Below are positions 1-50,653 of a stretch of 64,000 bases of DNA, piece by piece. Location of the stretch: positions 27,740,266-27,804,265 of the forward strand of contig OX387197.1 of NCBI GenBank assembly GCA_947561715.1, given 5' to 3'. Position 1 is the first letter of the stretch, and the number at the start of each line of letters is the position of its first letter. A program made the translations under genes and the position numbers. The notes under the pieces are model-generated. The model worked only from the letters and a program-made list of their open reading frames with translations, was not told the DNA's origin and ran no database searches. The DNA comes from Ascidia mentula. Lineage: Eukaryota; Chordata; Ascidiacea; Phlebobranchia; Ascidiidae.

Positions 1-3000
1 ATCAGCGAATATCGAAATCCTACTTGAAACTGCGCCACCTAATGGCCAATTCACCGAAAGTGAAGCCAGGAGACAAAAAGAAGTTGAGAGAGAGGCAGGA
101 CGCCCTCCAGAAGATCAGGAGGTAAGTTGGAACAAGGGAGGATATAAACCGTTTTCAGTTCAAATCCATATTTGAAACATTAAAAGATCCCGAACATTTA
201 TGATACTGAGGAGACCTTGTAGGTCGAAACAGTGGCCATCTTTATGCAGCTTACACAATTTATGAAACTGTTAAATTAGCGGAAATACCGGGAAACTTTT
301 GATCTGTACGAATATTTGAGTGAAAAACAAGAGAATATTCCAGAGCGAAGGACATGCAGCGGGAGGTCACGGTTGAGTTGAGCAGCAAAGGTTTCCGAAG
401 AACCGGGATTTATTCCGATGTTTGTCAACACTCTCTACTGCTCCCAGTGTTGACCCATCACCTCAGGTAGTAACTATTACAAGTGTATGTGGGGAGTGAC
501 TGAGAGGCACAGTTTTGTGACTTCATGATTGTTTTGGGGAAATCACGTAATTCTTGGTCGTGTGAAATATTTCGTTGTGATTTAAATTCCTATTTTACTG
601 ATCACCTGGCTTTGTTTATTACGTCACTCGTATATCGTCAGATACCACCTGTGTCTGAAGAGTTTGGAAAAGAAAATCGGATACGAGTTCAAGGAGAGGA
701 AATGGTTAAGTGTGAGTTTCTCCATTAACCCCAACGTCATACTAAGTTGATTCTAAAACCTTTGTTCAGCGCGCGATGAATCATCCAAGTTGTCAGATGA
801 ATTTCGGTTTAAATCCGGATCACGTGCGTAACGCTCTCTCCAACTGTGGTCTGAGAGTGCCTAGATACGGAGATAGCTCCATTCATTACAAGTAACTAAA
901 CATTATTACGTCATCTGGTGATGATGTCATCTTGTGGTTTATTAGCAAAAATACTTTGATGCAAACGGAGACTTATTAGTAGTGAAATAAACAACCAAAC
1001 AAATACAGTTTCTTTTTAACCTATAAAAAAAAGTAGTGCATAATGATGCAGTTTTTCCAATCCAACAAATTAAGAAGTGAGTAACCTAACAGATGGACGC
1101 GGAAGCGTGGTATTACCACACTGATCCGGATTATGGCAAGATTGGGACAGTACCGACCGGTGCTCTCCCCTATCGAGCACAATGAGAGATTGGAGTTTTT
1201 GGGTGACGCCGTCGTCGGATATTTCACGAGCGTTCACCTCTTCCTTATGTTCCCTGATCTATCAGAAGGTGCACTCACAACGTTTCGTACAGTCCTCGTC
1301 AACAATCAGCATCTGGCAACATTGGCCGAAGTGAGTTCTTGATTCCTTTTTCGTATTTGTGAAACTTGGATCAACCTTTCCTGAGTAAATCCACCCCATG
1401 TAGGATTTGGTGATTTCCCACAATATTGAAATATTCTCTTTCTATGCTTAAGATCAAAACTTTTTAAACACGGAAATATTTCAGCGTCTCCGCCTCGATG
1501 AATACATGCTGTACGCTCATGGTCCGGATTTATGCCGCAAAGCCGACTTACGTCACGCGATGGCAAATTGTTTCGAAGCCTTGATGGGTAAGTAGGTCAA
1601 GGTCACGTGTTTGTGTGCACCAAGGCGTGTAGATTTCAACCAACATAATGTTGATGTGACGTCATGTTTTGCGTAGGCGCAATCTACATGGAAGGTGGAC
1701 TCGGCCAAACTCAAAAACTATTCGGCGAGTTTCTGTGGGAAACCCCTAAACTGAAAGGAGTGTGGAGGGACTTACCCCTGCACCCTCTACAGGTTACGTA
1801 TTATTGGTTTTTATATTGGAGCTGGGTGGATGGTCACCGCCATCTGCAAATACGTTTACTAAACGTTGTAATGAATTTCGAAACTCCAAACATCCTCATC
1901 ATCTTTCCTGCATCCCGGAGCAGGAAGAAGAGCCAGGATCCGACAGAGGATGCATCAAGGATGTTCCGATCCTCCAGAAGCTGACCAAGTTCGAGGATTC
2001 GATCGGAGTCGAGTTCAACCACGTCAGGATTCTCGCCAAAGCTTTTACTTGGAGGAATGTCTACGAGAACATTCTAACAAGGTGACGTAACAATCAGGGC
2101 GCTTCGCATTTTACTCGTTCTAACTTAAGTTGCACAGAGGTCACAACCAACGCTTGGAGTTTCTTGGAGATTCGATTTGCAACCTCGTCGCTTCCACATA
2201 TCTCTTCAAGGTCTATCCCACACACCACGAAGGTGATTCCCCTGGTGTACTTTGTGACGTAACAATAGTAACTTTGGCAATCAAAGTAGTTTAACGTTGA
2301 CCAAAATCACCCATTACCCAACCAGCTATAGTCTTCAAACTGGATAATATTTTATCTGTTGCCACGAAACCAGACAACATGTGAATGTTTAACTAATTTT
2401 GTTTGTGACGCAGGACATCTCACGTTGCTACGGGCAACCATTGTGAACGGGCGTACGCAGTCGCTAGTAGCAACGGAGTTGGGAATGCCTGAATACGTCA
2501 TATGTAATTTGGATGGGGACACTTCAGGTAAAACGTTGCATGAATGGATTGTGTTGCTACCATGTTTCAATCAACATAATATTCAAAATGACAAGCTGTT
2601 TTTTCTTTAAAACATTCCAGATATCAAACCGGTTTTCCTTTAAAACACCCCAGATATCAAACCGGTTTTCCTTTAAACCACCCCCAGATATCAAACCGGT
2701 TTTCCTTTAAGACACCCCCAGATATCAAACCGGTTTTCCTTTAAAACACCCCAGATATCAAACCGGTTTTCCTTTAAGACACCCCCAGACATCAAACCGG
2801 TTTTCCTTTAAAACACCCCAGATATCAAACTGGTTTTCCTTTAAAACACCCAAGATATCAAACCGGTTTTCCTTTAAGACACCCCAGATATCAAACCGGT
2901 TTTCCTCTAAAACACCCAAGATATCAAACTGGTTTTCCTTTAAAACACCCAAGATATCAAACCGGTTTTCCTTTACAAACACCCCAGATATCAAACCGGT

Positions 3001-6000
3001 TTTCCTCTAAAACACCCCAGATATCAAACCGGTTTTCCTCTAAAACACCCCAGATATCAAACCGGTTTTCCTCTAAAAAAACCCAGATATCAAACCGGTT
3101 TTCCTCTAAAACACCCCAGATATCAAACCGGTTTTCCTCTAAAACACCCCAGATATCAAACCGGTTTTCCTCTAAAACACCCCAGATATCAAACCGGTTT
3201 TCCTCTAAAAAAACCCAGATATCAAACCGGTTTTCCTTTAAAACACCCCAGATATCAAACCGGTTTTCCTCTAAAAAAACCCAGATATCAAACCGGTTTT
3301 CCTTTAAAACACCCCAGATATCAAACCGGTTTTCCTCTAAAACACCCCAGATATCAAACCGGTTTTCCTCTAAAACACCCCAGATATCAAACCGGTTTTC
3401 CTCTAAAAAAAACCCAGATATCAAACCGGTTTTCCTCTAAAACACCCCAGATATCAAACCGGTTTTCCTCTAAAACACCCCAGATATCAAACCGGTTTTC
3501 CTTTAAAACACCCCAGATATCAAACCGGTTTTCCTCTAAAAAAACCCAGATATCAAACCGGTTTTCCTCTAAAACACCCCAGATATCAAACCGGTTTTCC
3601 TCTAAAACACCCCAGATATCAAACCGGTTTTCCTTTAAAACACCCCAGATATCAAACCGGTTTTCCTCTAAAAAAAACCAGATATCAAACCGGTTTTCCT
3701 TTAAAAAAACCCAGATATCAAACCGGTTTTCCTTTAAAACACCCCAGATATCAAACCGGTTTTCCTCTAAAACACCCCAGATATCAAACCGGTTTTCCTT
3801 TAAAACACCCCAGATATCAAACCGGTTTTCCTCTAAAACACCCCAGATATCAAACCGGTTTTCCTTTAAAACACCCCAGATATCAAACCGGTTTTCCTCT
3901 AAAAAAACCCAGATATCAAACCGGTTTTCCTTTAAAACACCCCAGATATCAAACCGGTTTTCCTCTAAAACACCCCAGATATCAAACCGGTTTTCCTCTA
4001 AAACACCCCAGATATCAAACCGGTTTTCCTCTAAAACACCCCAGATATCAAACCGGTTTTCCTCTAAAACACCCCAGATATCAAACCGGTTTTCCTTTAA
4101 AACACCCCAGATATCAAACCGGTTTTCCTCTAAAACACCCCAGATATCAAACCGGTTTTCCTCTACAACACCCCAGATATCAAACCGGTTTTCCTCTAAA
4201 AAAACCCAGATATCAAACCGGTTTTCCTTTAAAACACCCCAGACATCAAACCGGTTTTCCTCTAAAACACCCCAGATATCAAACCGGTTTTCCTTTAAAA
4301 CACCGCAGATATCAAACCGGTTTTCCTTTAAAACATCCCAGATATCAAACCGGTTTTCCTCTAAAACACCCCAGATATCAAACCGGTTTTCCTCTAAAAC
4401 ACCCCAGATATCAAACCGGTTTTCCTTTAAAACACCCCAGATATCAAACCGGTTTTCCTCTAAAACACCCCAGATATCAAACCGGTTTTCCTTTAAGACA
4501 CCGCAGATATCAAACCGATTTTCCTCTAAAACACCCCAGATATCAAACCGGTTTTCCTTTAAAACACCCCAGATATGAAACTCGATTCCCTTTAAAACAC
4601 CCCAGATATCAAACCGGTTTTCCTTTAAAACACCCCAGATATCAAACCGGTTTTCCTCTAAAACACCCCAGATATCAAACCGGTTTTCCTTTAAGACACC
4701 GCAGATATCAAACCGATTTTCCTCTAAAACACCCCAGATATCAAACCGGTTTTCCTTTAAAACACCCCAGATATGAAACTCGATTCCCTTTAAAACACCG
4801 CAGATATCAAACCGGTTTTCCTTTAAAACACCCCACATACCAATAACATATTCGTAACAAACCTCCAGGCGCCAAAGCACCAGAGTGGAGGGAGAAGAAT
4901 CTCGCCGATCTTCTCGAAGCTTTCGTGGCCGCTCTTTACGTGGACAAGGGTTTGAAATACGTGGAAGGGTTTATGAAAGTTTGCTTCTTCCCAAGACTAA
5001 AGGTACGGATTATGTTGAAATCTTCGCCTTTGTTGTTAACACACCAAGAGTAAATATGCTAGAAACGTGTATACCCTCCATGAGACACAGAACCATAATT
5101 TTGCCCCAACCTCGTGTACAACGTGACACATAACTTGTAAATCCACCATCCAGGAATTCATCTTGAAGCAAGAATGGAACGACCCCAAGTCGTGTTTACA
5201 ACAATGTTGCCTCACACTACGACAAGAAGGGAAAGAACCCCAACTCCCAACCTACGAAATATCTCACCAAACTGGTAACCTTGTTACGTCACAATCATGT
5301 GTAATGTTATGTAATAGAGGAGTTACACCCTCATTTAACAAACCGGTGTTAGGAAGTTGGTACAAATTAATTATTTAATCAATATTTGTATCAAACTTGT
5401 TAAGAGAAATGTGTAGTGATGTTTAACAGTAAGTGACCGGGATTCAAATCTCTGTGCTTAGGTCCCTCCCATGCAAGAAAATATGTTGTTTCTGTTTTTT
5501 TCGATGGAAAGTCAATCGGTTCAGGCACGGGAGAGAGGTATGACGTCATAAGTTCAATATGTTTGATCATTATTTCCTCACAAAACTTTGTGTCCCGCAT
5601 TCTCCACAATAAGTAAACGAAATGTGCAATGACGTCATTTGTGTTGCAGCATTCAGAAAGCCGAACGAAACGCAGCCAGAACCGCTTTGCAAGAATGTAA
5701 GTAATAACGTCATTCATGTTGATTGTTACGTTTAGTTGACATGTTGTTACGTCACAATTCGTTTGCAGACAACTTCCCGCAGTTAGAATGGCAGAAACGT
5801 TACGTGGCCGAGAAACACGACCTCCCTTACAAACCACGGATGGATTTGAAGAAAATTGACGTCACACAAGGTAAAATGTAGTGACGTCATCGTCAATCGA
5901 ATGATTACGTCAATGGATGATTTATTGGATGAAAACATTTTGAGATGATTTGGATAAATTAAAAACAAATTTTATTGGAAACATAGACAAGGAAATGGAG

Positions 6001-6172: not shown

Positions 6173-6178
6173 CACAAG
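6173..6178. repeat. Left target-site duplication CACAAG of the giant foldback element
   Basis: CACAAG at 6173-6178 precedes the element's first bases AGTAGTG. An identical CACAAG follows the last bases CACTACT at 20151-20156. The uninterrupted site in the second block (50648-50653) has a single CACAAG. Confidence 0.9.
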
Positions 6179-6210
6179 AGTAGTGTTTATCACACCACTT
6201 GCTCAATGAT

Positions 6211-6430
6211 TAATTAGAGGATGAAAGAGGATGAGGATGAAAGAGGATGAGGATGAAAGAGGATCAGGCTGAATGAGGATGAGGATGAAAGAGGATGAGG
6301 ATGAAAGAGGATCAGGCTGAAAGAGGATGAGGATGAAAGAGGATCAGGCTGAAAGAGGATGAGGCTGAAAGAGGATGAGGCTGAAAGAGGATGAGGATGA
6401 AAGAGGATCAGGCTGAAAGAGGATGAGGCC
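6211..6430 (+). repeat. Purine-rich subterminal minisatellite, left arm
   Basis: Imperfect tandem units built from GATGAGGATGAAAGAG and GATCAGGCTGAAAGAG, almost all purine on the plus strand. The mirror array in the right arm (19,932-20,112) differs in copy number and order, accounting for most of the length difference between arms. No coding value is apparent. Confidence 0.9.
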
Positions 6431-8257
6431 AAGTTGAGCCAAGTGCGAGATCAGAGCGTTGAGCCGAGTAATCTGCTATTGTACGACCCTGTGAGCGGGA
6501 GGGGCATTGTTAATTGTTCTCTCAATCACGTCGAGGTCAACACAAGTTCACACGTCGAACAATTAGAGTGTTACGCTTGCTTTAATTTCCCACTGCGAAA
6601 TCTATTGTTGTGAAAACTGCGTTGTAACCCACGCTGGTTTTCCGAAGTGAAAAAGAGTTTATTTATCAAACAAAAGTGTATAGCTGTCGTGTCGAATATG
6701 GATGTGTTCGATTGACATAGGGCCAAGAAGGAATAACATTTTCCTGACAAACATGGATAGCAACCGTTTAAACTTGAGTCAAAGCGGTGAAGAAGCTTTC
6801 AAACTGGGTTCTAGCCATTCCATATTAGAGATCGCATTAAAAAGCTCACGACCACAGCAGAAGCATTTCACCTGTAACAATTACAATATCAAATTACTCC
6901 GTGTCAAAACACACCTTTGTTTTTAAAATAACTTGTGCTTTTGCTTGATCACAGTGATTTTAAGTCAGAACGCCGATGGTTGTTTGTTTATGATCTGTCG
7001 CTGTGTGTGATTGTTAATTTGGCTGACGCAGGTCATAAAAATCACTCGAGCGATTCAAACTTGGTATTCCAAACGAATTGATTGGACGTTCAACAGAGTT
7101 CACACTGTGTTTTCGAGCTGGACGATCAGTTTACAACGTTGAAAGTTGAAGCCGACTCTGATCAAAACGATCACATACCAAAAAAGTACAATCACTTTAT
7201 AAGGATGATATTTATAACTAAGTTGAACCGAGCATGACGTGCTGATACATTTGGCCGATTGCTAATCTCGAGTGCAGTACGATGGTATGAAAGAGAAAAG
7301 TGTTAATTGTTCTCTTCTCTATAATCTGGAGCGGGCGTGGACACGGATGTTTAGCTCTTTCGATTTGCCTGGGAGCATTTCATACACCTTTTCATGCAGG
7401 CTTCTGATTGGTTTATTTCCATCCGAAGCACCGCACAATGCATTTGGAGCTGGGTAATTGGTACACGGGGCGGCGTATCGCTGATATAGGTTTGTTCGCA
7501 TTAATAAGTGTTTGACTGGTAAAAAATGTGCGATAATATTATTTATTTTTAAATAATGGAAAGAAAGTTCCCAGCGAAAAGAGGGTTGTTAAAAAAAAAG
7601 AAACTCCCAAGCGTATAACAGGGTAGGTGGAAGCGTTGTAATTAGCTTTGCAATAAAATAACGAAAGAAAAATTCCCCAGCGAAAACAGGGTAGGTGAAA
7701 AAGAAAGCTCGCAAGCGAACAAGAGGGTACGTGGATGCGTTGTAATTAGCGTTAGGTGCATGCGTTGTAATTAGCTTTAGGTGCATGCGTTCTAATTAAC
7801 ATCACAGCGACATGCGAACCAAACTTGATATTACAAACGGACGTTCAAAGAAGAGTGCACACTGCGTATTGTTTAACGATGAATGTCAGAGCACACGCTG
7901 TGCGAGTCTTGACGCGGCGCTGTGGGAAAATTGCTAGTTGTTCTTTTCCGTCTCCGGAGCGGGAGTGGGCACTTTGGAGCTTTTCACGCAGCTTTTCAGA
8001 CTGTTGATTGGTTTGTGGGGTTATAGTGAAAGCACGCGCTGTTTTATTTATGTTTATTTGGTCCAGCCGAAGCACCGCACGATACGTTTCGAATTGGACT
8101 ATCATGCAGCTTCGTAAAAGAACCAGTAAAAAAGAGAGTAGGGGAAGAGTTATGCGCCGCTTTGTAATAGTACAACGAAAGAACAACCACCAGCGAAAAA
8201 AGCATAGGTGAAAAAATAAGCTCCCAACAAGCAAGTACATGGTAGCTGCATAGCGTG
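6431..8257. other. Left-arm subterminal region without a recognisable gene
   Basis: No gene is seen. The stretch contains diverged direct repeats: a block with GAGCGGG, a CCGAAGCACCGCAC motif and TGATTGGTTT occurs at about 7,300-7,480 and again at about 7,900-8,110. Short GTTGTAATTAGC modules repeat at 7,635, 7,738 and 7,767. TTGATTGGTTT-type CCAAT-box motifs (for example 8,004-8,011) suggest that promoter DNA of the captured RRM2 gene may be included. That reading is inference. Confidence 0.5.
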
Positions 8258-10072
8258 ATGAAGACCAACATGATGGCATGCAACTCTAATATTCCTTGCG
8301 AAGTTCAAGTCAACAAAATCAACGAATTGAAACAAGAAACGGTAAGTTGGTTTACTCTTAAACTTGCTATTTCAGTTTTTTTTTTTGTAAATCTCATGCT
8401 GTAGTAAAAACTAAACGGATTTAAAACATAACTACAATTTAGATATTGTTTATTGTTTTGTAGAGCGACAGGGAAATTGGGCCATTGCTTCGTGACAACG
8501 CACGACGATTTGTCATCTTTCCTATTCAATATCATGACATATGGAGAATATACAAGAAAAGCAGAGGCTTCCTTTTGAACAGTGGAAGAGGTGCAAAATT
8601 CTTTGCCGCTTCCGACGGGATTGTTAATGAAAATCTCGTAAGTTACTCAAATACTACAAACAACTTTCAACAAGCTTGTATGGTTTGGTAAAATGAATTG
8701 TTACAATTAGGTCGAACGTTTTGCTCAATAAATACAAGTGACTGAAGCCAGATTTTTCTATGGTTTCCAAATTGCAATTGAGAATATTCATTTCGAGTTG
8801 TACTCTCTTTTGATCAATACTTATGCACGAGACAGTCAAGAGAGAGGAATGTAGTTTACGTATTTCACACCAACAATATGATAATTTTTCAATGAATGTT
8901 GCTCTGTTTTGTGGTTTCCTAATAGGCATTTTGTTATGTTGACATGTTCTGCAACACCACCATAGTTTTGTAAGCCTAACGTCAATCGTCAACCTTTCAT
9001 CTCAAAATTACGTTTTGTTTAACCATATTTTTATAGGGAGTACCTGTTCAACGCGATCGAAACTATGCCATGTGTTCGCAAGAAGGCTGAGTGGGCCCTC
9101 AAATGGATAAATTAGCAACAGTCAACCTCTGCAGAGCGAGTGATTGCATTCGTTGCGGTGGAAGGCATTCCTCTGCTGCAATATTCTGGTTGAAAAAAAC
9201 GAGGCCTAATGCCTGGTCTTACCTTTTCCTATGAACTCATCAGCCGGGATGAGGTTTGTATAAATTGTAAAGGCAACCATGTAAAGGGGGATATGCGGTG
9301 GTCGAAAATGCCCATACCCAGCGATGCGGCGTTGACCTTATTTTTGTGTTCATATTGTAATGTTTATGAGAAATGTCGTTTTGCTAACTTTTCAATAATT
9401 TAAAACGTGCTTTTTTGTTTCTTACAGGGCTTGCATTGTGATTTTGCCTGCTTGATGTTCAAGCATTTGATTAACAAACCATCTCATGCCCAAATAATTG
9501 AAATAATCGGAGATGCAGTTTGCATTGAACAGGCAAGTTTCACCTAATACACAGCTCCGCATCCATGCTTTCCAACCTTCAATGTTAATCATACAAATAA
9601 AAACGCTTACAGAATCCAAAATCCGCACCAAAGTGTAATGCACATAATTGCTGCAAATAAATTTATTTGGGAGAATAGCATGCATCACAATAGTTTTGTA
9701 AATTGCTGTTTTTTATATTACTTGTGCCAAACGCCACTCAAATAACGTAGTTTTGTGAAAGGCGAACTAACACACAACACAGTGTTGTAACGCGTCCGTT
9801 TGGTTTACAGGAGTTTTTGTCCAAAAATTGTGTTGTTTTTACTATTGTGTCTTAAGAAAATGTATTTCTGTGAATTTGTGATGCAATATATGAAAAATAC
9901 CGAATTGTATGTTTTAGGTGTACAAATCCGAAAAACCCTTTCGATTTCATGGAGTTGATCTTACTCGAAGGAAAAAAACAACTTCTTCGAAAAGCGCATC
10001 GGCGAATATTAGAAAGCTGGTGTGATGGCAAAAGCGGAAGACATCAAATTTACGCTAGATGCAGACTTTTAA
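8258..10072 (+). pseudogene. RRM2: Ribonucleotide reductase small subunit (RRM2) pseudogene, left arm
   Basis: The functional enzyme is the R2 subunit that makes dNTPs with a diiron-tyrosyl radical. Recognisable exons: 8258-8341, 8464-8637 ([23 protein letters not shown]), 8711 to about 8850 ([17 protein letters not shown], keeping the E-x-x-H iron ligands and radical Tyr), 9037-9253 ([25 protein letters not shown]), 9428-9532 ([14 protein letters not shown], ligand E-x-x-H completed across the junction) and 9918-10072 (ending FTLDADF). Introns have GT-AG or GC-AG borders, so this is not a retrocopy. Defects: a frameshift and deletion after IYKK removing the first Asp iron ligand, stop codons at 8729-8731 and 9113-9115 and another further along the same exon, loss of the exon after CIEQ, and a frameshift near 9932. 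It is inactive. It lies in mirror image in the other arm. Confidence 0.9.
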
Positions 10073-13000
10073 CCGTTTCCATTGTCATTTATTATATTTC
10101 TATCTTCGACTTACTAAAATAACTGGCATTGTTGTTGTTTTTCTTGTGGGAATCCAGTAATTTCGAATTGAAATGGCCGATTTTTTAAGAAAATTCTCCA
10201 CATATTCGTGCATGTTTGCTACTTGAGGTCGAGTTTTTCAGAGATCAGGCGTGGATGTCTGCGGGAAATTGTTATTACATTTACTATTGAACGCAGAATG
10301 TACACCCACAGACAACAAACGTCTTATTTGGACGCCTTATCAGACCATAATTTGGTTAAAAAAACAAAATGGCACCTAATTATAAAAAGAAATGTCCCAT
10401 AAAGGTTGCAAGAAAAGTAGTTGTTAAAAAACTGCGTCCATTATTGCTAAAAAATGTATTAATGCTATTTGTTCACCGACTTAGCACGACGATTGTTCCG
10501 TGCAGGAGGAAGGGGGGCCTTATCTTTCCTCAGTCCACTGGGGGGAACAACAGATTATTCACTTACTTTAAAAATATTTTACATCATATTTTTCAAACCA
10601 ATGCATGTGATTGATGTAAATTTAACTATGTCTGTATAAAAAAAGCTAGACCCTTGTCCCAAACTACAACCGACACGTTGGTATAAACTTGCGGTTAATA
10701 TTTACCTAATGTATTTCATTTTCTTCAGTGTTCTCTAAAATTGTGTATAAGCTGCAGACAGATGGCCACTGTTTCGACCTAAACGGTCTCATCAGTGCAG
10801 CTGGTGTGACTATAAGACGACTTTGCCGACCAAACGCCCAAGCAAAGACTTCCACTTTGTGGTGACTATAAAATCACCGTTCTTCAAAATGCTTACAATT
10901 ATCTTTAATAATCTATTACGTAAAAACACCACAAAATCAGACGAGACAAACCAGACCTCCGTCTAACGATTGACTGGTCGAAAACCAACTTGATTGTTTA
11001 TTTCGTTTCAAGGCGTTAATTTAAAACAAAAACAAAACAAAAAAATATTTAATGGCAAAGATATATCATTGTAATGTTTGGAAACAATCTTTGTCAGGTT
11101 GATCTGGTATTAAATCACGTTTGAGTTTTATTCAGTTACCTACATCCTTTATAAGTTTAAAATAATGTTTTGCACTGTTTTTGTATAAAATTGAATCAAT
11201 GCAGTTTGTTTTCCTAGTTTCGAAACATTACAATGACATGTCGTAGCCATCAATTAAAAAAAAATGTTTTCTTTTGAACAAATGCAGTAAAACACGACAT
11301 AAACAACCAAGTTTGGTGGTGCTATATATGCCTAAATCAACAAAGCGTTTACAAGAAAACACTTTACTTAAAGAAAGCATTTTACCTTGGGTCACAAGAG
11401 TTTTTAACCGATGCCTGTTGCTCTTATTGATAGGAGCAATAGCCCGATGAATTGAGTTTAAATACATTAAGTTTGTTGCCGACAGAATGCTTGTTGAGTT
11501 GGACTGTCCAAAGTCGATGAATCTGAACCGACGTATAGCTATTGACGACGGCGTTCCTGTGTCTTCCACCTGAGAAATAGATCGTTCAAATTAATTTCGT
11601 TTGAAACAATGAAAAGCGTGGGTTAAAGAAATGTATGCAATGCAGTTAAATGGTGAACACGCGCACAACATGCAGTTTATTGATCTCACGATCCGCGACA
11701 GAAATGTTCTAACTCTGGATAACTATCGAAAGCGGAAACTTAATTTTTTCAGTATATCCAATAAGTTAGGTGACAATAGTCTTATGTCTGTTGTGCCACA
11801 AGTTACGAATTTAAGACACGTTTTTTAATCAATGGATTTCGCTGGAACCAAGACGACACCCAAGCGAAGATAAACTATGCTAGACCTCAATAGCTGTTCC
11901 TATCGTAAAATCAACCTATACAGATGTGTTATGTATTTCTGCTCTCTTCTTTCACTGAAAGAACTTGTATTGTAATCTTTTACCTTGCTTGCGGGTAAAC
12001 ACTGCCCGCATTTACATTCTGTGACCTTGAGTTGTTTGTTTTCATCATCACAGCTTTACACATTGTACGGTTTCCATGTTATAGTCGCAAGTGGGGTTCA
12101 CTTGATGCTTTGCTGTGGTCGTCGCAATCAGAACCATGTATGAACGAATCTCAACGTTACCATTAAGATTAACAATGTCAGCAGAGCATTCGGTGCGTAA
12201 AATATGTGCGTCACCTTTCTCTTCCCAACCTGGAGATGTCGTTCATATATTCTCAGCAAAACGATCGAGATGTTGAAAATATCTTGGGCCGAAATTGACA
12301 AAACTATTGACCATCAGTCAATTCAAGTCGCTTGTGTTTAAGCGGTATATTGTTTCGAATGCGATCCTATAGAATGTCAGGGCACATGAGACTTATTACA
12401 CTGATCCACTATATTTACCAACAGCACACGCGGGTGAAAAGGCCAACGCAACAGAAAAGCAAACCATTTTAAATGTATCAATCAAATAGAAATAGAAAAA
12501 CAAGTAGGTCGGAAAAGAGCGGTCGATCGACGGCCAACTAATGTTATTCATTTACTGTTCCGCTGGTATGTCAATAAATCTGAACTGACGTGGCTATTGG
12601 CGATGACGTTTCTCTCGAGACCTTCACTCGAGATTTATATCGTTCAAAGTAATTTCGTGTGAGCAATGAAAAGCGTTGGTTAAAGAAACATATGCGCAAC
12701 GCAGTTAAAACATGAACACGCGCAACAACATGCGACTTTTCATCGCACGTTCCGCGACAGCAATTTGCTAACCCTGGATCACTACCGAAAACCGTGCACA
12801 TCTGCGGCACGTGAAGACACTCTCTTAAAAACTAGAACTGGGTTTTAATTTGCGATGTGTAATAATTTACTGGTAAGTACAGCCAAAGATGCCCATGCAG
12901 GCGAAACTTAATTTTTCGAATATATCCAACAAATTAGGTGACATCCATCTCATGTCTGTTGTGCCACAAGTTACAAATTTGAGACACATTTTTCAATAAG

Positions 13001-13108
13001 TTGATGTCGCTGGCACCAAAACGATGCCTACGCGAGGATAAGACTTTGCTAGACCAAAATAGCTGGTTCCTATCGAAAAATCAAGGCATCTAGATCATTC
13101 CAAGTATA
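10073..13108. other. Left-arm inner region, repeats and unidentified exon-like stretch
   Basis: A dispersed foldback repeat occupies about 10,745-10,880. On the minus strand 11,393-11,571 looks like an exon: TTTCTCAG acceptor, an open frame starting VEDTGTPSSIAIRRFRFIDF, then a GTAAAA donor. I do not recognise the product. The stretch 11,510-11,900 is repeated in diverged form at 12,580-13,080, where the frame is degraded. Everything is mirrored in the right arm at 13,250-16,287. Nothing else gene-like is seen. Confidence 0.45.
10745..10880 (+). repeat. Dispersed foldback repeat inside the left arm
   Basis: This copy is nearly the same as the one at 29,285-29,440 in an NDC80 intron: TAAGCTGCAGACAGATGGCC, a GTTTCGACC core, then GTGCAGCTGGTGTGACTATA. 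Its mirror copy lies at about 15,480-15,615. It shows that the foldback element has captured or received a repeat common in this genome. Confidence 0.8.
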
Positions 13109-13251
13109 CCCCCCTCTTCCCCCCCCCTCCCCCCCCCTCCCCTCCCCCAAAAAAAGAGAAAGGTGAAAAACAAACTTAAAATGAAAACCTAACTTCATCT
13201 TTTTTTTGGGGGGGGGGGGAGGGGGGGGAGGGGGGGGGGGGAAGAGGGGGG
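13109..13251. repeat. Palindrome axis: C-tract, short spacer, G-tract
   Basis: The left arm ends in a run of nearly pure C (13,109-13,148), the right begins with nearly pure G (13,208-13,251). About 40 bp of unpaired spacer separates the short A and T runs inside them. The G-rich strand has many runs of at least four G and could form quadruplexes. Tract lengths differ between arms, as expected for slippage or sequencing uncertainty. Confidence 0.85.
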
Positions 13252-16200
13252 TATACTTGGAATGATCTAGATGCCTTGATTTTTCGATAGGAACCAGCTA
13301 TTTTGGTCTAGCAAAGTCTTATCCTCGCGTAGGCATCGTTTTGGTGCCAGCGACATCAACTTATTGAAAAATGTGTCTCAAATTTGTAACTTGTGGCACA
13401 ACAGACATGAGATGGATGTCACCTAATTTGTTGGATATATTCGAAAAATTAAGTTTCGCCTGCATGGGCATCTTTGGCTGTACTTACCAGTAAATTATTA
13501 CACATCGCAAATTAAAACCCAGTTCTAGTTTTTAAGAGAGTGTCTTCACGTGCCGCAGATGTGCACGGTTTTCGGTAGTGATCCAGGGTTAGCAAATTGC
13601 TGTCGCGGAACGTGCGATGAAAAGTCGCATGTTGTTGCGCGTGTTCATGTTTTAACTGCGTTGCGCATATGTTTCTTTAACCAACGCTTTTCATTGCTCA
13701 CACGAAATTACTTTGAACGATATAAATCTCGAGTGAAGGTCTCGAGAGAAACGTCATCGCCAATAGCCACGTCAGTTCAGATTTATTGACATACCAGCGG
13801 AACAGTAAATGAATAACATTAGTTGGCCGTCGATCGACCGCTCTTTTCCGACCTACTTGTTTTTCTATTTCTATTTGATTGATACATTTAAAATGGTTTG
13901 CTTTTCTGTTGCGTTGGCCTTTTCACCCGCGGGTGCTGTTGGTAAATATAGTGGATCAGTGTAATAAGTCTCATGTGCCCTGACATTCTATAGGATCGCA
14001 TTCGAAACAATATACCGCTTAAACACAAGCGACTTGAATTGACTGATGGTCAATAGTTTTGTCAATTTCGGCCCAAGATATTTTCAACATCTCGATCGTT
14101 TTGCTGAGAATATATGAACGACATCTCCAGGTTGGGAAGAGAAAGGTGACGCACATATTTTACGCACCGAATGCTCTGCTGACATTGTTAATCTTAATGG
14201 TAACGTTGAGATTCGTTCATACATGGTTCTGATTGCGACGACCACAGGAAAGCATCAAGTGAACCCCACTTGCAACTATAACATGGAAACCGTACAATGT
14301 GTAAAGCTGTGATGATGAAAACAAACAACTCAAGGTCACAGAATGTAAATGCGGGCAGTGTTTACCCGCAAGCAAGGTAAAAGATTACAATACAAGTTCT
14401 TTCAGTGAAAGAAGAGAGCAGAAATACATAACACATCTGGATAGGTTGATTTTACGATAGGAACAGCTATTGAGGTCTAGCAAAGTTTATCTTCGCTTGG
14501 GTGTCGTCTTGGTTCCAGCGAAATCCATTGATTAAAAAACGTGTCTTAAATTCGTAACTTGTGGCACAACAGACATAAGACTATTGTCACCTAACTTATT
14601 GGATATACTGAAAAAATTAAGTTTCCGCTTTCGATAGTTATCCAGAGTTAGAACATTTCTGTCGCGGATCGTGAGATCAATAAACTGCATGTTGTGCGCG
14701 TGTTCACCATTTAACTGCATTGCATACATTTCTTTAACCCACGCTTTTCATTGTTTCAAACGAAATTAATTTGAACGATCTATTTCTCAGGTGGAAGACA
14801 CAGGAACGCCGTCGTCAATAGCTATACGTCGGTTCAGATTCATCGACTTTGGACAGTCCAACTCAACAAGCATTCTGTCGGCAACAAACTTAATGTATTT
14901 AAACTCAATTCATCGGGCTATTGCTCCTATCAATAAGAGCAACAGGCATCGGTTAAAAACTCTTGTGACCCAAGGTAAAATGCTTTCTTTAAGTAAAGTG
15001 TTTTCTTGTAAACGCTTTGTTGATTTAGGCATATATAGCACCACCAAACTTGGTTGTTTATGTCGTGTTTTACTGCATTTGTTCAAAAGAAAACATTTTT
15101 TTTTAATTGATGGCTACGACATGTCATTGTAATGTTTCGAAACTAGGAAAACAAACTGCATTGATTCAATTTTATACAAAAACAGTGCAAAACATTATTT
15201 TAAACTTATAAAGGATGTAGGTAACTGAATAAAACTCAAACGTGATTTAATACCAGATCAACCTGACAAAGATTGTTTCCAAACATTACAATGATATATC
15301 TTTGCCATTAAATATTTTTTTGTTTTGTTTTTGTTTTAAATTAACGCCTTGAAACGAAATAAACAATCAAGTTGGTTTTCGACCAGTCAATCGTTAGACG
15401 GAGGTCTGGTTTGTCTCGTCTGATTTTGTGGTGTTTTTACGTAATAGATTATTAAAGATAATTGTAAGCATTTTGAAGAACGGTGATTTTATAGTCACCA
15501 CAAAGTGGAAGTCTTTGCTTGGGCGTTTGGTCGGCAAAGTCGTCTTATAGTCACACCAGCTGCACTGATGAGACCGTTTAGGTCGAAACAGTGGCCATCT
15601 GTCTGCAGCTTATACACAATTTTAGAGAACACTGAAGAAAATGAAATACATTAGGTAAATATTAACCGCAAGTTTATACCAACGTGTCGGTTGTAGTTTG
15701 GGACAAGGGTCTAGCTTTTTTTATACAGACATAGTTAAATTTACATCAATCACATGCATTGGTTTGAAAAATATGATGTAAAATATTTTTAAAGTAAGTG
15801 AATAATCTGTTGTTCCCCCCAGTGGACTGAGGAAAGATAAGGCCCCCCTTCCTCCTGCACGGAACAATCGTCGTGCTAAGTCGGTGAACAAATAGCATTA
15901 ATACATTTTTTAGCAATAATGGACGCAGTTTTTTAACAACTACTTTTCTTGCAACCTTTATGGGACATTTCTTTTTATAATTAGGTGCCATTTTGTTTTT
16001 TTAACCAAATTATGGTCTGATAAGGCGTCCAAATAAGACGTTTGTTGTCTGTGGGTGTACATTCTGCGTTCAATAGTAAATGTAATAACAATTTCCCGCA
16101 GACATCCACGCCTGATCTCTGTAAAACTCGACCTCAAGTAGCAAACATGCACGAATATGTGGAGAATTTTCTTAAAAAATCGGCCATTTCAATTCGAAAT

Positions 16201-16287
16201 TACTGGATTCCCACAAGAAAAACAACAACAATGCCAGTTATTTTAGTAAGTCGAAGATAGAAATATAATAAATGACAATGGAAACGG
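13252..16287. other. Right-arm inner region, mirror of 10,073-13,108
   Basis: This is the inverted copy of the left inner region. It includes the exon-like open frame at 14,791-14,969 (plus strand) and a dispersed foldback repeat at about 15,480-15,615. Only scattered substitutions distinguish it from the left arm. Confidence 0.6.
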
Positions 16288-18103
16288 TTAAAAGTCTGCA
16301 TCTAGCGTAAATTTGATGTCTTCCGCTTTTGCCATCACACCAGCTTTCTAATATTCGCCGATGCGCTTTTCGAAGAAGTTGTTTTTTTCCTTCGAGTAAG
16401 ATCAACTCCATGAAATCGAAAGGGTTTTTCGGATTTGTACACCTAAAACATACAATTCGGTATTTTTCATATATTGCATCACAAATTCACAGAAATACAT
16501 TTTCTTAAGACACAATAGTAAAAACAACACAATTTTTGGACAAAAACTCCTGTAAACCAAACGGACGCGTTACAACACTGTGTTGTGTGTTAGTTCGCCT
16601 TTCACAAAACTACGTTATTTGAGTGGCGTTTGGCACAAGTAATATAAAAAACAGCAATTTACAAAACTATTGTGATGCATGCTATTCTCCCAAATAAATT
16701 TATTTGCAGCAATTATGTGCATTACACTTTGGTGCGGATTTTGGATTCTGTAAGCGTTTTTATTTGTATGATTAACATTGAAGGTTGGAAAGCATGGATG
16801 CGGAGCTGTGTATTAGGTGAAACTTGCCTGTTCAATGCAAACTGCATCTCCGATTATTTCAATTATTTGGGCATGAGATGGTTTGTTAATCAAATGCTTG
16901 AACATCAAGCAGGCAAAATCACAATGCAAGCCCTGTAAGAAACAAAAAAGCACGTTTTAAATTATTGAAAAGTTAGCAAAACGACATTTCTCATAAACAT
17001 TACAATATGAACACAAAAATAAGGTCAACGCCGCATCGCTGGGTATGGGCATTTTCGACCACCGCATATCCCCCTTTACGTGGTTGCCTTTACAATTTAT
17101 ACAAACCTCATCACGGCTGATGAGTTCATAGGAAAAGGTAAGACCAGGCATTAGGCCTCGTTTTTTTCAACCAGAATATTGCAGCAGAGGAATGCCTTCC
17201 ACCGCAACGAATGCAATCACTCGCTCTGCAGAGGTTGACTGTTGCTAATTTATCCATTTGAAGGCCCACTCACCTTCTTGCGAACACATGGCATAGTTTC
17301 GATCGCGTTGAACAGGTACTCCCTATAAAAATATGGTTAAACAAAACGTAATTTTGAGATGAAAGGTTGACGATTGACGTTAGGCTTACAAAACTATGGT
17401 GGTGTTGCAGAACATGTCAACATAACAAAATGCCTATTAGGAAACCACAAAACAGAGCAACATTCATTGAAAAATTATCATATTGTTGGTGTGAAATACG
17501 TAAACTACATTCCTCTCTCTTGACTGTCTCGTGCATAAGTATTGATCAAAAGAGAGTACATCTCGAAATGAATATTCTCAATTGCAATTTGGAAACCATA
17601 GAAAAATCTGGCTTCAGTCACTTGTATTTATTGAGCAAAACGTTCGACCTAATTGTAACAATTCATTTTACCAAACCATACAAGCTTGTTGAAAGTTGTT
17701 TGTAGTATTTGAGTAACTTACGAGATTCTCATTAACAATCCCGTCGGAAGCGGTAAAGAATTTTGCATACCTCTTCCACTGTTCAAAAGGAAGCCTCTGC
17801 TTTTCTTGTATATTCTCCATATGTCATGATATTGAATAGGAAAGATGACAAATCGTCGTGCGTTGTCACGAAGCAATGGCCCAATTTCCCTGTCGCTCTA
17901 CAAAACAATAAACAATATCTAAATTGTAGTTATGTTTTAAATCCGTTTAGTTTTTACTACAGCATGAGATTTACAACAAAAAAAACTGAAATAGCAAGTT
18001 TAAGAGTAAACCAACTTACCGTTTCTTGTTTCAATTCGTTGATTTTGTTGACTTGAACTTCGCAAGGAATATTAGAGTTGCATGCCATCATGTTGGTCTT
18101 CAT
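16288..18103 (-). pseudogene. RRM2: RRM2 pseudogene, right arm
   Basis: Mirror copy of the left-arm pseudogene, reading right to left, with the same stop codons, missing exon and frameshifts. It differs by a 2-bp indel after the GTGGAAGAGG stretch (near 17,768) and by point changes, for example ACC for GCC in the FFAASDG region. The shared lesions mean the gene was already broken before the arms were duplicated, or gene conversion has homogenised the arms. Confidence 0.9.
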
Positions 18104-19931
18104 CACGCTATGCAGCTACCATGTACTTGCTTGCTGGGAGCTTATTTTTTCACCTATGCTTTTTTCGCTGGTGGTTGTTCTTTCGTTGTACTATTACAAA
18201 GCGGCGCATAACTCTTCCCCTACTCTCTTTTTTACTGGTTCTTTTACGAAGCTGCATGATAGTCCAATTCGAAACGTATCGTGCGGTGCTTCGGCTGGAC
18301 CAAATAAACATAAATAAAACAGCGCGTGCTTTCACTATAACCCCACAAACCAATCAACAGTCTGAAAAGCTGCGTGAAAAGCTCCAAAGTGCCCACTCCC
18401 GCTCCGGAGACGGAAAAGAACAACTAGCAATTTTCCCACAGCGCCGCGTCAAGACTCGCACAGCGTGTGCTCTGACATTCATCGTTAAACAATACGCAGT
18501 GTGCACTCTTCTTTGAACGTCCGTTTGTAATATCAAGTTTGGTTCGCATGTCGCTGTGATGTTAATTAGAACGCATGCACCTAAAGCTAATTACAACGCA
18601 TGCACCTAACGCCAATTACAACGCATCCACGTACCCTCTTGTTCGCTTGCGAGCTTTCTTTTTCACCTACCCTGTTTTCGCTGGGGAACTTTTCTTTCGT
18701 TGTTTTATTGCAAAGCTAATTACAACGCTTCCACCTACCCTGTTATACGCTTGGGAGTTTCTTTTTTTTTAACTACCCTCTTTTCGCTGGGAACTTTCTT
18801 TCCATTATTTAAAAATAAATAATATTATCGCACATTTTTTACCAGTCAAACACTTATTAATGCGAACAAACCTATATCAGCGATACGCCGCCCCGTGTAC
18901 CAATTACCCAGCTCCAAATGCATTGTGCGGTGCTTCGGATGGAAATAAACCAATCAGAAGCCTGCATGAAAAGGTGTATGAAATGCTCCCAGGCAAATCG
19001 AAAGAGCTAAACATCCGTGTCCACGCCCGCTCCAGATTATAGAGAAGAGAACAATTAACACTTTTCCCTTTCATACCATCGTACTGCACTCGAGATTAGC
19101 AATCGGCCAAATGTATCAGCACGTCATGCTCGGTTCAACTTAGTTATAAATATCATCCTTATAAAGTGATTGTACTTTTTTGGTATGTGATCGTTTTGAT
19201 CAGAGTCGGCTTCAACTTTCAACGTTGTAAACTGATCGTCCAGCTCGAAAACACAGTGTGAACTCTGTTGAACGTCCAATCAATTCGTTTGGAATACCAA
19301 GTTTGAATCGCTCGAGTGATTTTTATGACCTGCGTCAGCCAAATTAACAATCACACACAGCGACAGATCATAAACAAACAACCATCGGCGTTCTGACTTA
19401 AAATCACTGTGATCAAGCAAAAGCACAAGTTATTTTAAAAACAAAGGTGTGTTTTGACACGGAGTAATTTGATATTGTAATTGTTACAGGTGAAATGCTT
19501 CTGCTGTGGTCGTGGGCTTTTTAATGCGATCTCTAATATGGAATGGCTAGAACCCAGTTTGAAAGCTTCTCCACCGCTTTGACTCAAGTTTAAACGGTTG
19601 CTATCCATGTTTGTCAGGAAAATGTTATTCCGTCTTGGCCCTATGTCAATCGAACACATCCATATTCGACACGACAGCTATACACTTTTGTTTGATAAAT
19701 AAACTCTTTTTCACTTCGGAAAACCAGCGTGGGTTACAACGCAGTTTTCACAACAATAGATTTCGCAGTGGGAAATTAAAGCAAGCGTAACACTCTAATT
19801 GATCGACGTGTGAACTTGTGTTGACCTCGACGTGATTGAGAGAACAATTAACAATGCCCCTCCCGCTCACAGGGTCGTACAATAGCAGATTACTCGGCTC
19901 AACGCTCTGATCTCGCACTTGGCTCAACTTG
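18104..19931. other. Right-arm subterminal region, mirror of 6,431-8,257
   Basis: Inverted copy of the left subterminal region with the same direct repeats and CCGAAGCACCGCAC motifs. No gene is seen. Confidence 0.6.
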
Positions 19932-20112
19932 GCCTCATCCTCTTTCAGCCTGATCCTCTTTCATCCTCATCCTCTTTCAGCCTCATCCTCTTTCAGCCTG
20001 ATCCTCTTTCATCCTCATCCTCTTTCATCCTCATCCTCTTTCATCCTTATCCTCATTCAGCCTGATCCTCTTTCATCCTCATCCTCTTTCATCCTCATCC
20101 TCTTTCATCCTC
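19932..20112 (-). repeat. Purine-rich subterminal minisatellite, right arm
   Basis: Mirror of the array at 6,211-6,430, with pyrimidine units CATCCTCTTTCA on the plus strand. It is shorter by roughly 40 bp, showing independent copy-number change after the arms formed. Confidence 0.9.
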
Positions 20113-20150
20113 TAATTAATCATTGAGCAAGTGGTGTGATAAGCACTACT

Positions 20151-20156
20151 CACAAG
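20151..20156. repeat. Right target-site duplication CACAAG
   Basis: Immediately follows the element end CACTACT and is continued by CTACTTATTATGCAG, which follows CACAAG directly in the empty site at 50,648. Confidence 0.9.
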
Positions 20157-38119: not shown

Positions 38120-41100
38120 CATCATAAAAGTTTTGCACAGTATTACAACACTCCATTCGGAGTTGAACTGTAAAAACCGATTTCTTCCATTTCAATTGGC
38201 TTTTGAAAGACAAGCGACCAAGCATGTTAACGTGCCGGCAGTAGATACCAAACAGCGCGGGTCGTGCCTTCGTGTTCAATCAAGTTGTCAGTCTCTCATT
38301 CGTTTGTTTCAACTTCAATCGAAACAAAATTTTGCACAGTATTACAACACTCTATTCGGAGTTGAACTGTAAAACCCGATTTATTTTATTTTAATTGGCC
38401 TTTAAGATCCAAGCGACCAAGTATTTTAATGAGCCAACAGTAATACCAAACCGCGCGGGTCGTGCCCTTGTGTTCAATCAAGTTGTCAGTCTATCATTCG
38501 TTTGTTTCAACTTCAATCGAAACAAAATTTTGCACAGTATTACAACACACTATTCGGAGTTGAACTGTAAAACCCGATTTATTTTATTTTAATTGGCCTT
38601 TAAGATCCAAGCGACCAAGTATTTTAATGAGCCAACAGTAATACCAAACCGCGCGGGTCGTGCCCTTGTGTTCAATCAAGTTGTCAGTCTATCATTCGTT
38701 TGTTTCAACTTCAATCGAAACAAAATTTTGCACAGTATTACAACACACTATTCGGAGTTGAACTGTAAAACCCGATTTATTTTATTTTAATTGGCCTTTA
38801 AGATCCAAGCGACCAAGTATTTTAATGAGCCAACAGTAATACCAAACCGCGCGGGTCGTGCCCTTGTGTTCAATCAAGTTGTCAGTCTATCATTCGTTTG
38901 TTTCAACTTCAATCGAAACAAAATTTTGCACAGTATTACAACACACTATTCGGAGTTGAACTGCAAAACCCGATTTCTTTCATTTCAATTGGCTTTTGAA
39001 AGACAAACGACCAAGCATGTTAACGTGCCGGCAGTAGATACCAAACAGCGCGGTTGGGGGGGGGGTGTTCAATCAAGTTGTCAGTCTCTCATTCGTTTGT
39101 TTCAACTTCAATCGAAACAAAATTTTGCACAGTATTACAAAACTCTATTCGGAGTTGAACTGTAAAAACCGATTTCATTTATTTCAATTGGCTTTTGAAA
39201 GACAAGCGACCAAGCATGCTAACGCCCCGGCAGTAGATACAAAACCGCGCGGGTCGTGCCTTCGCGTTCAATCAAGTTGTCAGTCTCTCAGGCGTTTGTT
39301 TCAACTTCAATCGAAACAAAATTTTGCACAGTATTACAACACTCTATTCGGAGTTGAACTGTAAAACCCGATTTATTTTATTTTAATTGGCCTTTAAGAT
39401 CCAAGCGACCAAGTATTTTAATGAGCCAACAGTAATACCAAACCGCGCGGGTCGTGCCCTTGTGTTCAATCAAGTTGTCAGTCTATCATTCGTTTGTTTC
39501 AACTTCAATCGAAACAAAATTTTGCACAGTATTACAACACACTATTCGGAGTTGAACTGTAAAACCCGATTTATTTTATTTTAATTGGCCTTTAAGATCC
39601 AAGCGACCAAGTATTTTAATGAGCCAACAGTAATACCAAACCGCGCGGGTCGTGCCCTTGTGTTCAATCAAGTTGTCAGTCTATCATTCGTTTGTTTCAA
39701 CTTCAATCGAAACAAAATTTTGCACAGTATTACAACACACTATTCGGAGTTGAACTGTAAAACCCGATTTATTTTATTTTAATTGGCCTTTAAGATCCAA
39801 GCGACCAAGTATTTTAATGAGCCAACAGTAATACCAAACCGCGCGGGTCGTGCCCTTGTGTTCAATCAAGTTGTCAGTCTATCATTCGTTTGTTTCAACT
39901 TCAATCGAAACAAAATTTTGCACAGTATTACAACACACTATTCGGAGTTGAACTGTAAAACCCGATTTATTTTATTTTAATTGGCCTTTAAGATCCAAGC
40001 GACCAAGTATTTTAATGAGCCAACAGTAATACCAAACCGCGCGGGTCGTGCCCTTGTGTTCAATCAAGTTGTCAGTCTATCATTCGTTTGTTTCAACTTC
40101 AATCGAAACAAAATTTTGCACAGTATTACAACACACTATTCGGAGTTGAACTGCAAAACCCGATTTCTTTCATTTCAATTGGCTTTTGAAAGACAAACGA
40201 CCAAGCATGTTAACGTGCCGGCAGTAGATACCAAACAGCGCGGTTGGGGGGGGGTGTTCAATCAAGTTGTCAGTCTCTCATTCGTTTGTTTCAACTTCAA
40301 TCGAAACAAAATTTTGCACAGTATTACAAAACTCTATTCGGAGTTGAACTGTAAAAACCGATTTCATTTATTTCAATTGGCTTTTGAAAGACAAGCGACC
40401 AAGCATGCTAACGCCCCGGCAGTAGATACAAAACCGCGCGGGTCGTGCCTTCGCGTTCAATCAAGTTGTCAGTCTCTCAGGCGTTTGTTTCAACTTCAAT
40501 CGAAACAAAATTTTGCACAGTATTACAACACTCTATTCGGAGTTGAACTGTAAAACCCGATTTATTTTATTTTAATTGGCCTTTAAGATCCAAGCGACCA
40601 AGTATTTTAATGTGCCAACAGTAGATACCAAACCGCGCGGGTCATGCCTTCGTGTTCAATCAAGTTGTCAGTCTCTCATTCGTTTGTTTCAACTTCAATC
40701 GAAACAAAATTTTGCACAGTATTACAACACACTATTCGGAGTTAAACTGTAAAACCCGATTCCTTTTATTTCAATTGGCTTTTGAGAGCCAAGCGACCAA
40801 GCATGTTAACGTGCCGGCAGTAGATACCAAACCGCGCGGGTCGTGCCTTCGTGTTCAATCAAGTTGTCAGTCTCTCGTTCGTTTGTTTCAACTTCAATCG
40901 AAACAAAATTTTGCACAGTATTACAACACAATATTCGGAGTTGAACTGTGAAACCCGATTTCTTTCATTTCAATTGGCTATTGAAAGACAAGCGACCAAG
41001 CATGTTAACGTGCCGGCAGTAGATACCAAACCGCGCGGGTCGTGCCTTCGCGTTCAATCAAGTTGTCAGTCTCTCATTCGTTTGTTTCAACTTCAATCGA

Positions 41101-42190: not shown

Positions 42191-42719
42191 CAAGCATATC
42201 AATGTGCCAGTCGATAGCAAACCTATTATTATTTGAACATTATTTTCAATCAGTATAAACGAATGATGCATGCCTATATGTAATCGCTGTAATGGGAATG
42301 TTTGTATTTTAGGCGTTAGTTTGATTTCAATTAAAGCAAAATTTCCTGATGAATGGCAACCCTAAAAAATTGTCCCCTCCATTGTACTAGAATTGTTGCC
42401 GTGGGAGTCGGTCGACGTTGGGCAAAGAAATATCTGAAGCGTAAACAACTGTCAGATTTTGACTGATAATACGTTATTCCCATGTGAAACGCTTTTCGGC
42501 CAACAAATGAAAAAAGTTATGTTTGCTATTTGACTTTGTGCCTCAAACTTCAATGATATTTCACAACACCTTTTTTATTTGGTATCAAACAGTCATTCTG
42601 ATATGAAAAGACATGGTATGAGATAAACCTGTTAATTATGATAACATATAATACTCACAATTAATTATTTGTTTATTTATATGTCAAGTCAACGTCCTTG
42701 TTGCGTTAACATTGACGCG

Positions 42720-50508: not shown

Positions 50509-50647
50509 TCATATGGGAAGTATTGTTACGTCATGAGCTTGTGTTTCATGTTCAGCTCAAGAAAATAAAGCAAAAAAATACATTTTAGACTGACAATCTC
50601 TTCGAGTAGACTCGTATAGAGCATAAAAAGAAAAGAACATCATCATC

Positions 50648-50653
50648 CACAAG
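50648..50653. other. Empty insertion site of the giant foldback element
   Basis: CATCATCCACAAGCTACTTA is uninterrupted here. In block 1 the same sequence is split after CACAAG by 13,972 bp plus a repeat of CACAAG. This defines the element's ends and target duplication without ambiguity. Confidence 0.92.

What the first reader, a model, noticed from the sequence alone, without database searches (positions are those of the whole stretch)
6179..20150. A 14-kb foldback element with readable filled and empty sites
The sequence shows two near-identical ~7-kb inverted arms bounded by AGTAGTG/CACTACT and 6-bp CACAAG duplications, while the second block at 50,648 has the same flanks with a single CACAAG. 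Terminal repeats occupying essentially a whole 14-kb element are far beyond typical foldback transposons. AG termini and a 6-bp duplication recall Polinton/Maverick elements, yet no polymerase, integrase, ATPase or protease gene is present. It may be a non-autonomous palindromic derivative of such an element or a new family.
Basis: partly seen in the sequence, partly recalled or inferred. Interest (0 to 1): 0.88.

Follow-up and report, generated by a model that had tools for sequence, protein, structure and literature searches.

The report
Giant palindromic satellites of Polinton elements
A 14-kb stretch of sea-squirt DNA that reads as two mirror-image halves turns out to be one of several mobile copies wearing the end sequences of Polintons (virus-like jumping elements), which suggests a gene-less hitch-hiker that keeps its two halves alike by copying one onto the other.

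Summary
Observation confirmed: window 6179-20150 is a 13,972-bp near-perfect palindrome with 6-bp CACAAG duplications and a paralogous empty site at 50,648. It is not alone: by my reading, at least nine loci carry arm sequence in both orientations. Of 10 elements whose two ends I read, 9 abut matching 6-bp duplications (6 of 7 palindromes, 3 of 3 Polinton-bearing elements).

The window's ends match a 42-kb element with Polinton-type ATPase, integrase and protease. A sister palindrome's first 297 bp are 98.3-98.7% identical to the ends of two elements carrying ATPase, integrase and protein-primed polymerase. I found none of these genes in the window palindrome.

Unexpected: in each copy compared, the two arms are closer to each other (0-2.7% apart) than to other copies, and one arm core is joined to two different Polinton ends. 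So arms are homogenised by arm-to-arm copying; whether during protein-primed replication or in the chromosome is unresolved. I found no printed precedent for palindromic Polinton satellites in the searches named. New variant of a known kind.

The parts
6173..6178 (+). left target-site duplication CACAAG
6179..20150 (.). palindromic (foldback) element, 13,972 bp
6179..6725 (+). left end module: terminal inverted repeat and adjoining sequence shared with the ATPase-side end of the Polinton at C72:17349978
   Evidence: arm positions 1-547; short blocks of further similarity to arm position 716
6217..6428 (+). 16-bp tandem array in left terminus (13.2 copies)
6882..13148 (+). left arm core; no recognised gene; this is the part that sister palindrome C71b joins to another Polinton end
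13149..13211 (.). axis: asymmetric loop between C-rich and G-rich tracts; a homologous loop lies at the axis of two other copies
13212..19479 (-). right arm core (inner boundary; outer boundary inferred from the arm alignment)
19636..20150 (-). right end module, mirror of 6179-6725 (inner boundary inferred from the arm alignment)
19933..20112 (-). 16-bp tandem array in right terminus (11.2 copies)
20151..20156 (+). right target-site duplication CACAAG
50648..50653 (+). single CACAAG at the paralogous empty site; 49376-50653 and 50648-50946 match the filled site's flanks

Best explanation
The element is a gene-less, palindromic satellite of Polintons (Mavericks). Shown here: it belongs to a multi-copy family in this genome; copies bear Polinton terminal repeats and are flanked by 6-bp duplications as the Polintons are; one core is joined to two different Polinton end types; and in each copy tested the two arms are more alike than arms of different copies. 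Inferred: the Polinton integrase recognises its AGTAGT ends and inserts it in trans; the Polinton protein-primed polymerase copies it from those ends; and it stays palindromic because one arm is repeatedly copied onto the other. I think the copying most likely happens while the element is replicated as linear DNA: a nascent or displaced strand folds back at the hairpin-prone axis and copies itself, so one arm supplies both. This last step is the least certain (about 0.45); inter-arm gene conversion in the chromosome is nearly as likely.
For: Ends and duplications: 9 of 10 elements abut matching 6-mers, 6 of 7 palindromes and 3 of 3 Polinton-bearing elements. AGTAGT...ACTACT is the (AGT)2//(ACT)2 end motif, with 6-bp duplications, reported for vertebrate Mavericks (PMC8097293, passages). 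Window ends match C72:17349978-17391860, which carries ATPase (Adeno_IVa2 above its cut-off; Pox_A32 below), integrase with chromodomain, and a C5 protease. C71b's first 297 bp are 98.3-98.7% identical to all four ends of C69:21856469-21871296 and C2:18110756-18122797, both with ATPase, polymerase and integrase. Family: arm hits in both orientations at nine loci. Homogenisation: in 12 within-copy comparisons over four segments (window 4, C71a 3, C71b 3, C52 1, C69 1) the arms differ by 0-0.62% in window, C71a and C71b, 1.66% in C52 and 2.71% in C69, each time less than either arm differs from its nearest other copy in that segment (0.84-4.76%). Five of five arm pairs placed in the tree are sisters, support 0.90-1.00. 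C67's arms are 94-97% alike, and 69-93% like other loci over matches of 200 bp or more. Both C71a arms lack arm positions 2986-3320; both C71b arms lack 1472-1574 and 1797-1916. Both C71b arms begin their core at the same arm position, 704, although the C71b axis loop is homologous to those of the window and C72a: if the palindrome is that old, an end change reached both arms. Both window arms carry sequence matching the ATPase-side end of C72 beyond the repeat shared by that element's two ends, as expected if one end was duplicated.
Against: No mobilisation, replication intermediate or transcript was observed. The Polinton that shares the window's end type has no detected polymerase and is inflated by other insertions and a tandem array. 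About 6.3 kb per arm has no Polinton homology among the pieces held, so its origin is unknown. C69:15043590-15093920 shows no matching duplication. A complete reset of both arms at each insertion is contradicted for the window copy: at 8 of 23 arm differences both states also occur in other copies, against 6.2% expected for random substitutions (binomial 5e-5), and at 3 of 11 in C71a (0.03); C71b 0 of 4, C52 1 of 25 and C69 4 of 76 fit a reset. The window differences are also uneven, with one substitution between arm positions 3103 and 5698, which may mean patchy conversion in place. C52's arms (1.66%) are only slightly closer to each other than to the nearest other copy (1.83%). Some loci show arm sequence in one orientation only (C52:13.07, C52:20.59, C69:12.63, C69:2.37), so palindromy is not universal.
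Confidence: 0.75

Rival explanations
1. Same elements, but the arms are kept alike by gene conversion between inverted repeats after insertion, as in chromosomal palindromes; replication plays no part in it.
For: Shared-state sites in the window copy (8 of 23) and the uneven spread of differences argue against one complete copying event per insertion.
Against: In C52 and C69, 24 of 25 and 72 of 76 differences have one state not seen in the other copies compared, as if these arms were identical at insertion and only drifted since. Copies with more decay (C52, C69, C67) have more diverged arms, so continuing conversion has not kept up there.
Confidence: 0.4
2. An unrelated transposon superfamily with 6-bp duplications whose ends resemble Polintons by convergence.
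For: No Polinton gene was found in the arm.
Against: The likeness is long nucleotide identity (297 bp at up to 98.7%; 368 columns at 95%), not a short motif.
Confidence: 0.03
3. Assembly artefact: a false inverted join.
For: Palindromes are a known assembly hazard (recalled); reads are not available here.
Against: Arms differ at 23 positions and in array length; other copies have their own flanks and duplications; an empty paralogue exists. The assembly is long-read with an estimated QV of 64.9 (PMC11109543, passages).
Confidence: 0.02
4. An autonomous element whose genes are too diverged to recognise.
For: Open frames of up to 146 aa exist in the arm.
Against: Ten of the eleven left-arm frames of 80 aa or more were scanned and gave no credible Pfam match (one at E 0.044, below its cut-off); no longer frame exists there.
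Confidence: 0.03

Closest known systems
Polinton/Maverick elements
   Same: (AGT)2//(ACT)2 ends, 6-bp duplications, and terminal repeats shared at DNA level with coding Polintons of the same genome
   Different: no Polinton gene found; nearly the whole element is one inverted repeat
Galileo (P superfamily), Drosophila
   Same: foldback-like copies of long inverted repeats with internal tandem repeats; 98-100% identity between repeats mentioned in a passage cut at 'of the same', and sequence exchange among copies proposed (PMC3573991, abstract and passages)
   Different: longest repeats there about 1.26 kb (95.2% identical); P-element superfamily; here about 7-kb arms and Polinton ends
Drosophila Foldback and sea-urchin TU elements
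   Same: long inverted repeats with tandem subrepeats near the ends (recalled)
   Different: other duplication lengths (9 and 8 bp, recalled) and no Polinton link known to me
Palindromic derivatives of protein-primed replicons (yeast linear plasmids, adenovirus end-duplication genomes)
   Same: one end duplicated to both sides: a model for the mechanism (recalled; the listings show no paper that I recognise as describing them)
   Different: extrachromosomal; here the products are chromosomal insertions propagating as a family

Membership tests
Polinton/Maverick | 6-bp target-site duplication | tested here: met
   window CACAAG; 9 of 10 elements tested
Polinton/Maverick | (AGT)2//(ACT)2 type termini | tested here: met
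   motif from PMC8097293 (passages)
Polinton/Maverick | terminal inverted repeats shared with coding members | tested here: met
Polinton/Maverick | pPolB, integrase, ATPase, protease and capsid genes in the element | tested here: not met
   tblastn of frames of 100 aa or more from 12 Polinton-related loci (polymerase not among them) gave only short matches in the end region and one of 30 aa at 19496-19585; 10 of 11 left-arm frames without credible Pfam match; genome searches with ATPase (100 of 100 candidates scored), polymerase (86 of 114) and integrase (107 of 338) list no hit inside the window. Hence a derivative, not a Polinton proper
Foldback elements (structural class) | inverted repeats making up most of the element | tested here: met
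Foldback elements (structural class) | tandem subrepeats in the termini | tested here: met
Drosophila FB family | 9-bp duplication (recalled) | tested here: not met
   6 bp
Galileo / P superfamily | P-type transposase in coding copies with the same ends | tested here: inconclusive
   the three coding elements with the same ends carry rve-type integrase and other Polinton genes; a P-type transposase was not itself searched for
Satellite of a virus-like element | depends on a helper's enzymes | not testable with these tools
   inferred from shared ends only

The most novel reading that the evidence does not exclude
The palindromes are defective-interfering-like satellites of animal Polintons: replicated from Polinton ends by the helper polymerase, re-made as palindromes when a strand folds back at the axis, able to swap between helper families by acquiring their ends, and perhaps packaged. 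Three copies (12.6, 14.0 and 15.0 kb, the last with about 3.1 kb of unmatched sequence) fall near the size of the two compact coding Polintons (12.0 and 14.8 kb); three others do not (3.3, 8.6 and 27.2 kb; coordinates).
Probability: 0.22. Interest if true: 0.82.

Novelty: new variant of a known kind. Interest (0 to 1): 0.62.

Why it matters
Polintons are thought to be integrated viruses, but how they replicate is known mostly by analogy. A lineage that parasitises their ends and stays palindromic would give a natural record of what their replication does to DNA, and pairs satellite and candidate helpers in one sequenced animal. It also shows that foldback elements can bear the ends of a self-synthesising, virus-like element and reach the scale of the helper itself.

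Tried and rejected
Rejected: assembly join (other loci, own duplications, empty site); chance; IS3EU or Dada-type superfamilies, considered only from memory because of the 6-bp duplication (long DNA identity to Polinton ends decides against them); a simple fold-over of the Polinton at C72 (similarity stops within about 0.7 kb of the end). Complete reset of arms at each insertion was tested and is not fully supported. A first duplication table was set two bases off for type II ends and was replaced. One search allowed shifts of up to 8 bases at each end and kept the match with the best terminus; eight of the nine accepted matches abut AGTAGT on both sides, and the ninth (C1:9525593) reads AGTATAGTATAC on its left side. 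C72a, C70:3.87, C52:20.59 and other fragments were not scored for duplications because an end is missing or was not fetched. In one search positions without letters in both arms were left out; arms covering under 85% of a segment were dropped; the tree left out the right arms of C69, and C72a's two arms overlap there by only about 0.55 kb. The homoplasy expectation assumes uniform sites and 60% transitions and used two more rows. A tenth locus, C72:9886948-9891273, also has short matches in the second orientation and was not counted. Literature searches whose listings show no palindromic or foldback Polinton: (at most 20 papers listed per call; passages read of PMC8097293, PMC6431247, PMC3573991, PMC2836005, PMC8504770, PMC12910113 and PMC11109543; subscription papers and Repbase entries are not covered). 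PMC3573991 mentions expansion of Polinton inverted repeats, citing works that I did not read, so some precedent for longer repeats exists.

Full report
Setting. The window is G000:C1:27740266-27804265 of an assembly of 195.8 Mb in 79 contigs. The nine chromosome lengths in Table 2 of the Ascidia mentula genome note agree with nine large contigs seen in my calls, to within rounding (C1 27.92, C2 19.88, C52 23.17, C67 22.72, C69 22.34 against 22.35, C70 21.17, C71 19.87, C72 19.66, C73 15.45 Mb; PMC11109543, passages). I take the organism to be that sea squirt. The best database match of a Polinton protein is from Phallusia mammillata, recalled to be of the same family.

The observation. Positions 6179-20150 form a 13,972-bp palindrome, with 23 substitutions between arms over 6,639 compared positions. 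It begins AGTAGTG, ends CACTACT and is flanked by CACAAG on both sides. A paralogous block carries the same flanks and a single CACAAG at 50648, 98.9% (left, 1,278 bp) and 97.0% (right, 301 bp) identical next to the site. Filled and empty sites are thus readable. Each terminus has a 16-bp tandem array.

A family. Searching the genome with three stretches of the left arm gives hits in both orientations at nine loci by my reading: the window, C71:11.89 (C71a), C71:19.07 (C71b), C52:12.89, C72:9.90 (C72a), C69:15.04-15.09, C70:3.87, C67:11.56-11.58 and C1:9.53; a tenth, C72:9.89, has only short matches in the second orientation. Others have one orientation or are fragments. Counts are lower bounds, since the tool scores only the best candidates. 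C67 and C69 are spread out by intervening sequence; in C67 it includes long open frames that I take to be retrotransposons, without a family search. In C71a, C52 and C72a the two sides of the axis differ in extent.

Ends. Type I ends (window, C71a, C52, the one end seen of C72a, C69:15.04) match the two ends of C72:17349978-17391860. That element has a CCCCTG duplication, an ATPase (Adeno_IVa2 1.8e-5, above its cut-off; Pox_A32 3.5e-4, below), an integrase with chromodomain (3e-17, 1.7e-8) and an adenovirus-type protease (5.7e-6). A 629-aa frame there matches 99 proteins, one of which carries a weak double-jelly-roll hit. No polymerase was found in it, and it holds frames of other mobile elements and a 1,885-bp tandem array. 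Type II ends (C71b, C1:9.53, and C67 at 85%) match both ends of C69:21856469-21871296 and C2:18110756-18122797: for C71b 297 bp at 98.3-98.7%. Those two elements each contain an ATPase, a protein-primed polymerase frame of 1,068 or 1,087 aa (the second with one stop in the matched stretch) and an integrase, and have duplications TTTATT and GTTGGT. Of 10 elements tested, 9 have matching 6-bp duplications; C69:15.04 does not. Vertebrate Mavericks are reported with (AGT)2//(ACT)2 ends and 6-bp duplications (PMC8097293, passages).

One core, two ends. In C71b the match to the Polinton ends stops after 297 bp and the palindrome core begins, matching the window arm from arm position 704 (the two ends of the C2 Polinton stay alike for about 400 bp, so C71b holds part of that repeat). 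Both C71b arms match the window arm from the same position. So the same core is joined to different Polinton ends in different copies. In the window, sequence beyond the C72 element's own repeat (324-333 bp) still matches its ATPase side to arm position 547, with short blocks to 716; both window ends therefore carry one and the same Polinton end.

Homogenised arms. Four arm segments gave 12 within-copy comparisons: window 0.50, 0.53, 0.09, 0.00%; C71a 0.62, 0.00, 0.09%; C71b 0.00, 0.00, 0.19%; C52 1.66%; C69 2.71%. Each is below the distance of the same arms to the nearest other copy (0.84-4.76%), narrowly so for C52 (1.83%) (substitutions only, while, counting gaps, gives 91-94% for C69 and 96-99.6% for C52). 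Five of five arm pairs placed in a tree are sisters (support 0.90-1.00). C67 has arms 94-97% alike and 69-93% like other loci over matches of 200 bp or more. Copy-specific deletions occur in both arms of C71a and of C71b. The axis loop is homologous in window, C72a and C71b; either the palindrome is old and arms are rewritten, or the same axis is used again each time one arm is copied. Both mean arm-to-arm copying.

When does it happen? If arms were made identical at insertion, later differences should be private. They are in C71b (4 of 4), C52 (24 of 25) and C69 (72 of 76), but not fully in the window (15 of 23) or C71a (8 of 11), against 6.2% shared expected by chance. Homogenisation is thus strong but not a clean reset. 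I lean to copying during linear replication because the ends are those of a protein-primed replicon and the axis is hairpin-prone, but conversion in the chromosome is nearly as likely.

Function. No gene is recognised in the arms within the limits. The simplest account is a non-autonomous satellite served by Polinton enzymes; service in trans is inferred, not shown. Lengths near that of compact Polintons (window 13,972; C71b 12,582; C71a 15,032 with about 3.1 kb that does not match the window arm; Polintons 12,042 and 14,828) are compatible with packaging, but C1:9.53 (3,268), C52 (8,616) and C67 (27,169) differ (coordinates), so this proves nothing.

Novelty. Foldback elements with homogenised long repeats are known (Galileo, PMC3573991, passages), as are Polintons. 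A multi-copy, near-complete palindrome on Polinton ends was not seen in the listings, which cover open-licence papers only.

Noticed in passing
G000:C72:13495247-13497633: Tandem array with a step of about 102-104 bp, similar to a short tandem repeat inside the palindrome arm (window 18614-18802): a satellite apparently related to the element.
   Followed up: partly
L026-L027 (G000:C72:17358000-17377999): A 1,885-bp unit repeated in tandem (ten repeats of the same 141-aa frame seen in the two pieces) inside the 42-kb Polinton.
   Followed up: no
L036 600-1948 (G000:C71): NACHT and NOD2-type winged-helix frames at the left boundary of palindrome C71b, which seems to have inserted into or next to an innate-immunity-type gene.
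   Followed up: no
window 2584-4843 and 44938-49318: Short-period tandem array with long open frames (HPRYQTGFPLK-type unit), longer in the second block than in the first.
   Followed up: no
window 38127-42223 and 42728-44536: Two further tandem arrays with steps of about 199 and 102 bp.
   Followed up: no
G000, many loci: Genome rich in Polintons: several loci have polymerase frames of about 1,000-1,100 aa within about 10 kb of ATPase and integrase frames.
   Followed up: partly
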